Shown: positions 21,904-26,004 of the stretch, piece by piece | How the letters are laid out: each line of letters opens with the position of its first letter | How positions within the stretch are numbered: position 1 is the stretch's first letter | Origin: Moritella sp. PE36 | GTDB lineage: Bacteria > Pseudomonadota > Gammaproteobacteria > Enterobacterales > Moritellaceae | Reading direction: 5' to 3' | DNA: 64,000 nucleotides | Assembly (NCBI RefSeq): GCF_000170855.1 | Contig: NZ_ABCQ01000001.1 | Coordinates: 124,001 to 188,000, forward strand | Made by a program: the position numbers and the translations under genes | Notes under the pieces: model-generated | What the model was told of the DNA's origin: nothing | Seen by the model: only the letters and a program-made list of their open reading frames with translations | The model's database searches: none

Positions 21904-22037
21904 TTGCGCTGAAAATAACAATGACAATTTTCTTTGAAACAACAAAGACAAATGTGATAGAACTAACAGTAATATATAAAAATCTGGCGTGATGTATGAA
22001 TATCACGCCCTTAATTCTAAATGGAGATTTTTCAGCT

Positions 22038-23069
22038 ATGGCCACTTTCTCACTCGCTTTCGGTAGTGCTACTAAAAACACTGCAGGTAAAATTATCGAA
22101 GCTTTTTTCCCGAATCCGCTGCTAAACCCAAGTGATAAACTGGTTGCCGATATTAGCGAAGTCGTTAATTATCAAGGCCAGAATAAAGTTATTGAAGTAA
22201 CGCCTGCACAAGCAGCGCAACTTGCAACAGCATTCACCGCAAATGATGATGCAGCTAATGCTAAATTTGCAACGGCAGCAGCAAACAGTAAGCAACCGCT
22301 AGTGCTTGTTGTGCTTGCAACTGACGAAAAACCAGCATCTGTTGCAGAAGGTTATCTAAAGCTACAACTGATTTCACACCGCCTAGTTAAGCCGCACTGC
22401 ACTGTACTTGACGGTATCTTTGGTCTATTACATAACATCGCATGGACTAACCAAGGTCCGATTGATTTACCCGAGCTTGCTGAGCGTCAAATTGCAGCAC
22501 GTCTTGCCGGTGAAGTATTAACAGTAAGCAGTGTTGATAAGTTCCCTAAAATGACGGATTACGTGGTACCAACAGGTGTACGTATCGCACACACTGCACG
22601 TGTACGTTTAGGCGCTCACGTTGGTGAAGGCACAACGATCATGCATGAAGGCTTTGTTAACTTTAATGCTGGTACAGAAGGTGTGAGCATGGTTGAAGGC
22701 CGTATCTCTGCCGGTGTTATGGTTGGTAACGGTTCTGACATCGGTGGCGGCGCTTCTATCATGGGTACATTAAGTGGCGGTGGCCAATTAGTTATTTCTA
22801 TGGGTGAAAACTGCTTACTTGGCGCCAACGCTGGTTTAGGTATTCCACTGGGTAACCGTTGTACTATCGAGTCTGGTCTATACATTACTGCAGGGTCTAA
22901 AGTACAAATATTAGATGCGAGTAATCAAGCGGTTGAAATTGTTAAAGCACGTGATTTAGCGGGTAAAGATGACTTGTTATTCCGTCGTAATTCAATCTCA
23001 GGCACGATTGAATGTTTAACCAATAAATCAGCGGTTGAACTAAACGCAGAACTACACTCAAACAACTAG
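22038..23069 (+). CDS. dapD: Tetrahydrodipicolinate N-succinyltransferase
   Basis: It succinylates tetrahydrodipicolinate in the lysine and meso-diaminopimelate pathway. The start is the ATG at 22038 (MATFSLAFGSATKNT), preceded by GGAG; an in-frame ATG 42 bases earlier adds unmatched residues. With 343 residues this is the long form known from Vibrio and Pseudomonas, not the 274-residue E. coli form. The C-terminal half is a hexapeptide-repeat helix with glycine-rich turns (SDIGGGASIMGTLSGGG). A terminator follows. Confidence 0.95.
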   Translation: MATFSLAFGSATKNTAGKIIEAFFPNPLLNPSDKLVADISEVVNYQGQNKVIEVTPAQAAQLATAFTANDDAANAKFATAAANSKQPLVLVVLATDEKPASVAEGYLKLQLISHRLVKPHCTVLDGIFGLLHNIAWTNQGPIDLPELAERQIAARLAGEVLTVSSVDKFPKMTDYVVPTGVRIAHTARVRLGAHVGEGTTIMHEGFVNFNAGTEGVSMVEGRISAGVMVGNGSDIGGGASIMGTLSGGGQLVISMGENCLLGANAGLGIPLGNRCTIESGLYITAGSKVQILDASNQAVEIVKARDLAGKDDLLFRRNSISGTIECLTNKSAVELNAELHSNN

Positions 23070-23131: not shown

Positions 23132-23155
23132 AGCCCAGTAATGCTGGGCTTTTTT
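23132..23155 (+). terminator. Rho-independent terminator after dapD
   Basis: Seven-pair stem AGCCCAG / CTGGGCT (23132-23138 with 23144-23150), loop TAATG, and a run of Ts. It insulates dapD from the Fic gene. Confidence 0.9.
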
Positions 23156-23200
23156 GTCCCTGAAAATCACGCTGATGTATTTTATGAGTCCAACAATTTC

Positions 23201-23262
23201 CTATTAGGCTCATAAAATGAGTTGAATAATCCCCTATTCGGCTCATAATGTGAGTCGAATAG
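23201..23262. repeat. Two tandem palindromes upstream of the Fic gene
   Basis: Two related palindromes lie 31-92 bases before the Fic start. The first, 23201-23229, has arms CTATTAGGCTCAT and ATGAGTTGAATAA around AAA (nine of 13 positions pair). The second, 23234-23262, has arms CTATTCGGCTCA and TGAGTCGAATAG around TAATG (11 of 12). A further half site (TATGAGTC) is near 23183. They cover the region where the promoter should be, so they may be operators for the C-terminal winged helix of the Fic protein; this is inference. Confidence 0.75.
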
Positions 23263-23292
23263 CTTGATTAATTGACTCAGTGTGAGGTGACT

Positions 23293-24396
23293 ATGTGGAT
23301 ATGGGAACAAGGTGAATGGCCTAACTTTACCTGGAGTGAAGCTGACATATCGCCAATTTTGCGCCAAGCACACTTTAACCAAGGTTTATTACTTGGCAAA
23401 GTTAAAGCTCAGAATAACAATGAACAACAAGTTGCGCTCGATACTCTGCTCGCTAATATCGTCTACTCTAGTGCGATTGAAGATGAAAAGCTTAATGCCT
23501 TTTCAATACGTTCATCGCTAGCGAATAAATTAGGCATCAGCGAAGAAAAACCGTATCCGACATCAGAAAAGACCGATGGTCTTGCCGAGATCATGCTCGA
23601 CGCGATTACTAATTTAGATGACGAACTTACCCTTGAGCGCATCCTAAATTGGCACACATTATTATTTCCAGAAGGTTATACCCTATTCAATCCGGTACAA
23701 GGTGGCGTATTACGCGGTGATACTCCTATGCAAGTGGTATCAGGTCGATTAGACCGTCCTACTGTTCACTTTGAAGCACCACCAAGGCATGTTTTAGATA
23801 ATGAGTTAACCGCCTTTATCACTTGGTTTAATCAATCAAAAACAAACAACATATTAGACCCTTTGATACGCGCAGCCATCACCCACTTATGGTTTGTGAC
23901 ATTGCATCCTCTCGATGACGGTAATGGTCGTATCACACGTCTACTGACAGACCTTGCCTTAGCGCAAGCGGAAAACCAATCAATTCGTTTTTATGCTATG
24001 TCAGTGAGTATCTTGGCCAGACGTAAAGGTTATTACGAGATATTAGAACAAACTCAGAAAGGTGAAACAGATATTACCGCTTGGTTAACCTGGTTTTTTG
24101 ATACGTTAAATCACACGTTATTATCCACATTGCAGGATATTGAACAAACGGTATTGAAAACCAATTACTGGCTTCGCATTGATCAGACTCAACTAACAGC
24201 AGAACAAGTAAAAGTAATCAATCGCTTATTAGATGGTGACTTTGACCAAGGTATTAACTCGAGTCAATATCAAAAAGTCGCCAAGGTAAGTAAAGCTACA
24301 GCCACTCGACATTTAAATACTTTAATCGAACTTGGCTGCTTGAACAAAACTGGCGCAGGTGGACGTAGCACGCGTTATTTAATTAATTATATCTAA
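23293..24396 (+). CDS. Fic family protein (DUF4172-Fic-winged helix type)
   Basis: Fic domains usually transfer AMP from ATP to hydroxyl side chains of target proteins. The start is the ATG at 23293, with GAGGTG three bases upstream. The 367-residue protein begins with a DUF4172-like domain (MWIWEQGEWPNFTW), has the active-site motif HPLDDGNGRITR at about residues 205-216, and ends in a helix-turn-helix segment (VAKVSKATATRHLNTLIELG, about 315-340). An N-terminal SSAIED (S59-D64) resembles the inhibitory motif [ST]xxxE[GN] of class II Fic proteins, with Asp at the last position. No antitoxin gene is adjacent. Target unknown. Related palindromes flank the gene on both sides. Confidence 0.9.
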   Translation: MWIWEQGEWPNFTWSEADISPILRQAHFNQGLLLGKVKAQNNNEQQVALDTLLANIVYSSAIEDEKLNAFSIRSSLANKLGISEEKPYPTSEKTDGLAEIMLDAITNLDDELTLERILNWHTLLFPEGYTLFNPVQGGVLRGDTPMQVVSGRLDRPTVHFEAPPRHVLDNELTAFITWFNQSKTNNILDPLIRAAITHLWFVTLHPLDDGNGRITRLLTDLALAQAENQSIRFYAMSVSILARRKGYYEILEQTQKGETDITAWLTWFFDTLNHTLLSTLQDIEQTVLKTNYWLRIDQTQLTAEQVKVINRLLDGDFDQGINSSQYQKVAKVSKATATRHLNTLIELGCLNKTGAGGRSTRYLINYI

Positions 24397-24401
24397 TTAA
24401 T

Positions 24402-24430
24402 CTATTCGGCTCATAACATGAGTCGAATAG
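24402..24430. repeat. Downstream copy of the Fic-flanking palindrome
   Basis: Arms CTATTCGGCTCAT and ATGAGTCGAATAG flank AAC (12 of 13 positions pair), starting six bases past the Fic stop. The identity with the upstream copy at 23234 continues past the palindrome (GAATAGC, then TTAAT), giving a direct repeat of about 41 bases with about five differences. Confidence 0.8.
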
Positions 24431-24496
24431 CATGGTTAATCGCATCATTAGCCTCCATTTGATCACAACCCGCTCGGTTTACTTTATCCCAGGCAC

Positions 24497-24525
24497 AAAA
24501 AAGCCACTGCAACTGCAGTGGCTTA
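24497..24525 (-). terminator. Rho-independent terminator after ptsG
   Basis: On the minus strand AAGCCACTGCA and TGCAGTGGCTT pair and are followed by six Ts. It lies 19 bases past the ptsG stop. Confidence 0.9.
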
Positions 24526-24543
24526 AATCAATCAGGTGAGTGA

Positions 24544-26004
24544 TTATAGCGTATTGATATACTCTTCCATATCAGTACGTAGGTTATCAGACTTAGTACC
24601 GAAGATAGCTTGGATACCAGAGCCAACCACAACGACAGCTCGTGCACCTAACGCTTTCAGTTTATCTTGGTCAACATCATCGATAGAGTTAACGCTGATA
24701 CGTAAACGAGTAATACATGCGTCTAGGTTAGTGATGTTGTCTTTACCACCGAATGCAGCCACTAATTCAGCCGCCATTGCATCCGTTGATACTGGCGCAG
24801 CAGCAACTTCTTCACTTTCATCTTCACGTCCTGGTGTTTTAAGATCTAACATCTTAATCACTACGCGGAATACAGTGTAGTAAATAACAGCATAAACAAG
24901 ACCAACAACCGGTAACCACCAGCCATTCGTTGACTGACTGAACAATACAGTGAAATCAATAAAACCGTGTGAGAATGTAGTACCGTGTTTAATGCCCAGT
25001 AAGATCATTACAACAAACGCAGAACCCGCTAGTAAAGCATGGATCACATACAGTACAGGTGCAACGAATAGGAATGCGAATTCGATTGGTTCAGTAATAC
25101 CGGTTAAGAATGAAGTCAGCGCAGCAGATGCCATGATGCCCATTACTTTAGCGCGATTTTCAGGCTTAGCTGAGTGCGCAATAGCGATTGCAGCAGCAGG
25201 TAGACCGAACATCTTAAACATATAACCACCAGCCATGTTGCCGGCAGTTGGGTCGCCTGCTACATAACGTGAGATCTCACCCGTAAACCACTCGCCATTG
25301 GCGGCAGTACAAAGTGTTTCAGTCGCAGCTGCGATAGCAGAACCATCAACCGATTTACAATATGCGCCCGCTTCGAAGAAGAAAGGTACATTCCAGATAT
25401 GGTGTAAACCAAATGGAATTAAGGCACGTTCAACAACGCCATAGATACCAAATGCCATTGCTGGATTTTGGTAAGCAGCCCAATCAGAGAATGTAGAGAT
25501 TGCGCCGCCGATTGGAGGCCAAACAACAGAAAGAACCAGACCAAGTGCAATAGCAGCAAAACCGGTAATGATTGGCACCGCACGTTTACCGGCGAAGAAA
25601 CCTAGATATTCAGGTAATTGAATACGGTAGAAGCGATTAAACACCCAACCAGCCAAAGCACCAACTAGAATACCACCCAGAACACCAGTATCGATGTTAT
25701 CAACACCCATCACGCCAGCCATAACACCTAGCGTTGCTGTCATGATGCCATAACCAACAATCGCAGCCAGACCCGCTACACCGTCATTTTTAGTAAAACC
25801 AAGTGCGACACCAATGGCAAATAGCAATGCCATTTGACCGAACACAGAGCCACCAGCTTGTTCCATGATGCTAGATAAGACATCAGGCATCCAACTAAAT
25901 TTAGCGGCACCAACACCTAATAAAATACCTGCAACCGGTAACACCGATACGGGTAACATTAATGACTTACCTACTTTCTGTAGATTTGCAAATGCGTTAC
26001 TCAT
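24544..26004 (-). CDS. ptsG: PTS glucose transporter subunit IIBC
   Basis: It imports and phosphorylates glucose. The 486-residue protein has the membrane IIC domain (about 1-395), a linker with the conserved [11 protein letters not shown], and a C-terminal IIB domain with phospho-acceptor cysteine C430 in NLDACITRL. There is no IIA domain, so it needs a separate EIIA-Glc. Similarity to E. coli PtsG is high throughout, including the N-terminus [20 protein letters not shown], which favours glucose over GlcNAc. The IIC loop near 215-245 is longer than in E. coli and contains two extra cysteines. Confidence 0.94.

What the first reader, a model, noticed from the sequence alone, without database searches (positions are those of the whole stretch)
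23182..24430. Fic gene bracketed by repeated palindromes
Two related palindromes precede the Fic gene (23201-23229, 23234-23262) and a third follows its stop (24402-24430). The upstream second copy and the downstream copy share about 41 bases with about five differences, so they form a direct repeat around the gene. The encoded protein ends in a winged-helix segment. Two models fit: operators for autoregulation, or the footprint of a cassette that moved in with a duplicated repeat. Having one copy behind the gene is odd for a simple operator.
Basis: partly seen in the sequence, partly recalled or inferred. Interest (0 to 1): 0.65.

Follow-up and report, generated by a model that had tools for sequence, protein, structure and literature searches.

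The report
Fic gene with self-operator half-site array
The repeated palindromes around this bacterial Fic (protein-AMPylating) gene look like the gene's own control switch, a ruler-like row of alternating half-sites kept across many Gammaproteobacteria, and in related Moritella species that lost the gene a short piece of the row is left behind as a scar.

Summary
The two upstream palindromes are part of a row of six alternating half-sites (23185-23279) overlapping a sigma70-like promoter; two more lie behind the stop (24404-24428). In the home genome the motif occurs only here. The same kind of array precedes the Fic gene in most gammaproteobacterial relatives (DUF4172-Fic-winged helix) with strict geometry (-> 19 bp <- 15 bp ->; 28 of 34 representatives under 80% identical), and half-site sequence tracks the recognition helix. 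Best explanation: negative autoregulation by the Fic protein, as shown experimentally for the Fic repressor CccR, with a different operator geometry. The inserted-cassette model is not supported for this site; instead six of nine fic-less Moritella genomes carry array remnants at the same dapD site, as expected from deletion between direct repeats. The downstream copy is specific to the two Moritella genomes that keep fic. True SoFic anti-phage genes also have dense upstream arrays with another period (about 30/40 bp), so array operators may be a general trait of Fic-winged-helix enzymes. No binding was measured.

The parts
23293..24396 (+). fic gene, 367 aa: DUF4172 (2-82), Fic domain (112-223, motif HPLDDGNGRITR at 205-216), winged helix with recognition helix 334-346
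   Evidence: start chosen by GAGGTG at 23284-23289 and by orthologs starting MWIW
23185..23194 (+). half-site A (->) TGAGTCCAAC
23218..23227 (+). half-site C (->) TGAGTTGAAT
23251..23260 (+). half-site E (->) TGAGTCGAAT
23270..23279 (-). half-site F (<-), weak: AATTGACTCA (2 mismatches)
23222..23249 (+). sigma70-like promoter TTGAAT-16-CATAAT inside the array: -35 in half-site C, -10 between D and E
   Evidence: consensus match only; count in the region not above shuffles; CATAAT-like hexamer at the same array position in many orthologs
24404..24413 (-). downstream half-site G (<-) ATTCGGCTCA
23132..23150 (+). terminator-like hairpin after dapD, left border of the variable site
21996..23069 (+). 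dapD, left neighbour
24544..26004 (-). ptsG-like PTS gene, convergent right neighbour

Best explanation
The palindromes are the binding sites of the Fic protein itself. The C-terminal winged helix of a Fic dimer recognises half-sites of the form TGAGTCGAAT that alternate in direction with fixed spacing (-> 18/19 bp <- 15 bp ->) over about 95 bp; because the array covers both promoter hexamers, binding represses fic (negative autoregulation). The extra <-15-> pair behind the gene is a second binding unit of the same protein, specific to Moritella, which also makes a direct repeat around the gene. Recombination or replication slippage between the repeats has deleted fic several times in the genus, leaving a solo array piece. 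Shown: the array, its uniqueness, conservation and geometry, the half-site/recognition-helix correspondence, the scars. Inferred: that Fic binds, that binding represses, and that the repeats caused the deletions.
For: Motif only around fic in 5.22 Mb. Upstream array above all 40 shuffles in 59 of 69 ortholog loci. Distances pile up at ->/<- 19 (98 pairs), <-/-> 15 (93), ->/-> 34 (71); 55 of 66 loci hold a ->19<-15-> triad, counting 18-20 for the first step. Test with free words: geometry 19/15 in 28 of 34 representatives below 80% identity; geometries that are not register shifts of it reach at most 6. In 512 kb of flanking DNA, 164 paired sites lie in the 200 bp before fic and 9 elsewhere, several of those being fic remnants or the Moritella downstream copy. 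Recognition helix 334-346: S338 goes with T at half-site position 4 (92 of 93), T338 with G (74 of 81); D335 with C3, A/P335 with A3. Precedent: CccR, a Fic+HTH protein, represses itself through inverted repeats (PMC9755527). Closest structure CbFic2 8CIL, Z 40.2, 344 residues, 2.4 A; dimeric and binds DNA. Scars.
Against: No binding or expression data. Helix/half-site correspondence is largely between clades, so phylogeny confounds it; one intermediate (L075, P335/T338) has only weak sites. The canonical-word filter restricts half-site positions 3 and 9 (not 4-6). A few relatives show no clear array (L083, L040, L132, L096). The promoter match is no commoner than chance. Solo palindromes in fic-less G003 and G006 have perfectly symmetric arms, which could mean a role of their own, though palindromes can also self-correct.
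Confidence: 0.88

Rival explanations
1. Insertion footprint: fic is a cassette that moved into a pre-existing palindrome (or duplicated one on entry), and fic-less relatives show the ancestral empty site.
For: Empty sites in G003, G008, G010 align without gaps to left flank + one palindrome + right flank. Related Fic genes are mobile: eight orthologs sit between DUF4400/traJ-like and traE-like genes of an SXT/R391-type ICE (hotspot 1 in PMC2791158).
Against: The two fic+ Moritella genomes lie in different clades, each with scar genomes, and fic diverged like its neighbours, so two independent insertions are unlikely. The palindrome is the same kind of half-site that precedes Fic genes at unrelated loci in other families, so a fic-free ancestor would have no reason to hold it. 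No transposase or integrase gene stands beside the site.
Confidence: 0.1
2. RNA or DNA hairpin element (terminator, mRNA stabiliser, REP/BIME-type repeat) unrelated to the Fic protein.
For: The 13-bp arms could form a hairpin; perfect symmetry is kept in two fic-less genomes.
Against: Single locus in the genome, so not REP. The third palindrome is not among the terminator-like sites; no Rfam family reaches its gathering score. Arrays hold odd numbers of half-sites and direct 34-bp periods that hairpins do not explain, and half-sites track the DNA-recognition helix.
Confidence: 0.03
3. Operators of another regulator (for dapD, ptsG or a global factor) that happen to flank fic.
For: Array pieces persist in six fic-less Moritella genomes.
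Against: Arrays follow fic to unrelated neighbourhoods (ICEs, Halomonas islands, Pseudomonas) and are absent at dapD in the G004/G005/G009 clade.
Confidence: 0.03

Closest known systems
CccR of Yersinia pseudotuberculosis (PMC9755527)
   Same: Fic domain + C-terminal HTH; dimer through the N-terminal helix; represses its own gene through inverted 10-bp repeats
   Different: Operator there is one pair AGATAATCAT-N26-ATGATAATCT: in the register used here <- and -> starts lie about 38 bp apart (my arithmetic) against 15 bp; no multi-site array is described in the passages read
CbFic2 of Coxiella burnetii (PDB 8CIL, PMC10628234)
   Same: Same three-domain architecture, 41% identity over 344 residues, Z 40.2; DNA binding reported to switch AMPylation to deAMPylation
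   Different: DNA binding was measured with random DNA and no cognate site is known; proposed effector on host histone, whereas this gene is a lone chromosomal gene
SoFic / Sofic anti-phage Fic (PMC12249575; NCBIfam NF046030)
   Same: Fic + C-terminal domain; PADLOC SoFic model matches at 1.9e-39; true SoFic genes also have dense upstream arrays
   Different: NF046030 score 63.7 against a cut-off of 550; array period about 30/40-42 bp in SoFic loci against 33/34 here; no convincing downstream small antitoxin gene like AS1 here

Membership tests
Autoregulated Fic-winged-helix repressors (CccR-like) | Fic domain plus C-terminal winged helix | tested here: met
Autoregulated Fic-winged-helix repressors (CccR-like) | Inverted-repeat operator overlapping its own promoter | tested here: met
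   (sequence level only)
Autoregulated Fic-winged-helix repressors (CccR-like) | CccR operator spacing (N26); a feature of CccR itself, not known to define the family | tested here: not met
   18/19 and 15 bp start-to-start here
Autoregulated Fic-winged-helix repressors (CccR-like) | Protein binds and represses its promoter | not testable with these tools
   needs EMSA, footprint, reporter
DUF4172-Fic (CbFic2-type) class II Fic enzymes | DUF4172 + Fic domain above Pfam gathering scores | tested here: met
DUF4172-Fic (CbFic2-type) class II Fic enzymes | Intact Fic motif and N-terminal inhibitory glutamate | tested here: met
   HPLDDGNGRITR; SSAIED with E63 kept but D instead of the usual G/N
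SoFic equivalog (NF046030) | Score above curated cut-off | tested here: not met
   63.7 against 550 bits
Type II toxin-antitoxin (Fic/Doc type) | Adjacent antitoxin gene | tested here: not met
   Neighbours are dapD and convergent ptsG; the only co-directional frame behind fic is 35 codons at 24432-24539 across the ptsG terminator hairpin
REP/BIME repeats | Many dispersed copies in the genome | tested here: not met

The most novel reading that the evidence does not exclude
The array is not just an operator but the enzyme's allosteric partner, a 'DNA antitoxin': Fic held on its own half-site array is kept in the dimeric, deAMPylating state, and anything that frees it (phage attack on DNA, loss of the array, replication imbalance) both derepresses the gene and turns on AMPylation; extra copies (downstream in Moritella, solo arrays in Halomonas) are additional holding sites. 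Array operators of subfamily-specific period (33/34 bp in the DUF4172 type, about 30/40-42 bp in SoFic) would then be a general, unreported feature of antitoxin-less Fic-winged-helix defence proteins.
Probability: 0.15. Interest if true: 0.85.

Novelty: new variant of a known kind. Interest (0 to 1): 0.55.

Why it matters
Class II Fic enzymes are the commonest Fic proteins, yet how their activity is held in check is largely unknown (stated in PMC9755527). A conserved cognate DNA array gives a concrete site for binding, repression and allostery tests in a family whose DNA partner had only been probed with random DNA, and a motif that marks former fic genes after they are gone.

Tried and rejected
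REP/BIME repeat: rejected, single locus. A second genomic site TCGACTCATTCTGTGAGTTGA shared by most Moritella genomes turned out to be a hairpin between rpoB and rpoC without the ATTC/GAAT arms. Type I restriction-modification context of the orthologs, guessed from an upstream peptide, was wrong: the neighbours are ICE transfer genes. Extra arrays in Halomonadaceae looked like a regulon but lie only within about 50 kb of fic, and several are followed by broken fic starts. Rfam: only sub-threshold matches.

Full report
What is there. The window lies in a Moritella genome (the nearest genome, G001, is Moritella dasanensis: G001:C25 and NZ_AKXQ01000025.1 have the same length and hold the same gene). 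Between dapD (21996-23069, +) and a convergent ptsG-like gene (24544-26004, -) sits one gene, 23293-24396, encoding a 367-aa protein with an N-terminal DUF4172 domain, a Fic domain with intact motif HPLDDGNGRITR and a C-terminal winged helix. The predicted structure (mean pLDDT 89) matches CbFic2 (8CIL) over 344 residues at 2.4 A, Z 40.2, including the winged helix; the next chains (4RGL, SoFic) follow at Z 26.

The palindromes. The three palindromes are at the stated places, and the copy-2/copy-3 repeat differs at 5 of 41 bases. Read as half-sites of canonical form TGAGTCGAAT, the upstream region is a row of six: A-> 23185, B<- 23203, C-> 23218, D<- 23236, E-> 23251, F<- 23270 (F weak); downstream there are G<- 24404 and H-> 24419. 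Spacing is 18 or 19 bp from -> to <- and 15 bp from <- to ->, hence the 33-nt direct repeat reported by the repeat finder. A promoter-like match, TTGAAT-16-CATAAT, lies in C and in the D/E gap. The match is not above chance by itself, but a CATAAT-like hexamer recurs in the same gap of many orthologs.

Uniqueness. In 5.22 Mb the full palindrome pattern has one place; the arm with up to one mismatch has five places, four of them here; with two mismatches it is rarer than its reversed control. The looser palindrome core (2 mismatches) gives only the copies here and an unrelated rpoB-rpoC hairpin. This is not a dispersed repeat.

Conservation. I collected Fic orthologs from 59 relatives, from the 84,980-genome collection and from 369 gammaproteobacterial genomes. 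A de novo search for repeated or inverted 10-mers in the 160 bp before each gene, without any consensus, scores above all 40 dinucleotide shuffles in 59 of 69 loci. In canonical register the pair distances are sharply peaked: ->/<- 19 bp (98 pairs), <-/-> 15 bp (93), ->/-> 34 bp (71); 55 of 66 loci hold at least one triad (-> 18-20 <- 15 ->) and 30 a four-site run. With free words and all geometries from 12 to 26 bp, 19/15 is found in 28 of 34 representatives less than 80% identical; the only comparable geometries are register shifts of the same 34-bp period, others reach at most 6. Arrays come as six sites (Moritella and the ICE group), four sites (Halomonadaceae, Pseudomonas), two triads (deep branches with TGCGGAGATT-type half-sites) or one triad. 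In 512 kb of flanking DNA 164 pairs fall in the 200 bp before fic and 9 elsewhere.

Correspondence with the recognition helix. The predicted recognition helix is 334-346. Helix SKPTASRHL goes with TGATTTGAAT, SKATATR(H/D)L with TGAG(C/T)CGAAT, SRATAYREL with TGAAGCGATT, S(Q/P)DTA(Y/L)RDI with TGCGG(A/C)GA(A/T)T. S338 accompanies T at position 4 in 92 of 93 half-sites, T338 accompanies G in 74 of 81; D335 accompanies C at position 3, A or P335 accompanies A. Phylogeny confounds this, but the S/T338 contrast occurs between proteins about 70% identical overall. I take it as good support that the winged helix reads these half-sites.

Scars in fic-less Moritella. Nine of eleven genomes of the genus lack any detectable relative of this gene. 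At the same place after dapD, G003, G008, G010 and G006 carry half-site A plus one palindrome (partly decayed in G010; A decayed in G003 and G006), G002 and G007 a single ATGAGTCGAATAG, and G004, G005, G009 nothing. G003, G008 and G010 align almost without gaps in this stretch to a join of the window's left flank up to the first palindrome and the right flank after the third. On a glnD-dapD tree the two fic+ genomes fall in separate clades, each with scar genomes; the three traceless genomes form one clade. fic DNA identity between the two fic+ genomes (83.2%) is like that of the glnD part (84.3%) and below dapD (89.4%). The simplest history is an ancestral fic at this site and about five losses (my reading of the tree), leaving array pieces. 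The direct repeat formed by the downstream copy offers the substrate; the recombination itself is inferred. Halomonadaceae show a similar picture: extra arrays only near the fic gene, some followed by broken fic starts, one by a vapBC-like pair and the 3' half of a fic gene.

The downstream copy. Of the orthologs with arrays, only the two Moritella genes have a clear <-15-> pair close behind the stop. Between the two genomes the 29-bp unit differs at two positions, both in the 5-nt spacer, while fic DNA differs at 17%; at that rate no change in the 24 other bases has a chance of about 1% (0.83^24, my arithmetic). This suggests, weakly, that the pair is kept as a binding unit. Whether it acts by looping, as a sink or as a road-block is open.

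Mobility. Eight orthologs about 70% identical lie between DUF4400/traJ-like and traE-like genes of an SXT/R391-type ICE, in Yersinia, Vibrio, Marinomonas, Pseudoalteromonas, Amphritea and others; a ninth (L066) is on a short contig with only the left gene. A Fic family protein is listed as a variable gene of ICEVchMex1, and hotspot 1 lies between traJ and traL (PMC2791158). So the family includes mobile, defence-type cargo, but the Moritella copy is a resident.

Mechanism. Most likely the Fic dimer represses its own promoter by covering the array. CccR, a Fic+HTH protein, does so by experiment (PMC9755527), with another spacing. For CbFic2, DNA binding is reported to shift the enzyme to deAMPylation (PMC10628234); the present array is the kind of cognate site that work lacked. 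SoFic, the anti-phage Fic, is a different subfamily (this protein fails the NF046030 cut-off), but a true SoFic (669 bits) and most of its relatives also carry dense upstream arrays, with periods about 30 and 40-42 bp. I found no report of such arrays in the papers searched; subscription papers are not covered.

Limits.

Noticed in passing
L045, L178-L201 (SoFic orthologs), about 10-200 bp upstream of the genes: True SoFic anti-phage Fic genes also have dense upstream arrays of alternating half-sites, e.g. TATGTCGATA in L178, or near-perfect 42-bp tandem units in L190; periods about 30 and 40-42 bp.
   Followed up: partly
L173-L175 (G425:C3:176000-234000), L176-L177 (G428:C18:21000-52000): Halomonadaceae island with up to six arrays within about 50 kb of fic, same strand; some followed by broken fic starts: apparent graveyard of fic copies.
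   Followed up: partly
L087:9100-10835: Array followed by a vapBC-like pair and the 3' half of a second fic gene: apparent insertion of a toxin-antitoxin module into a fic copy.
   Followed up: no
L051:1501-1710 and L041:1501-1782: Fragments of fic holding only the winged-helix end, one of them 1.6 kb upstream of an intact fic gene (G029): decayed copies or solo DNA-binding domains.
   Followed up: no
L124 site 1501-1521 (G000:C91:35772-35792): Hairpin TCGACTCATTCTGTGAGTTGA conserved between rpoB and rpoC across most Moritella genomes.
   Followed up: no
Right of the fic site in Moritella (window 24431-24543; L062:7217-9241): A gene that looks like a methyl-accepting chemotaxis gene lies between the fic site and ptsG in some Moritella genomes and is absent in others, including this window.
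   Followed up: no
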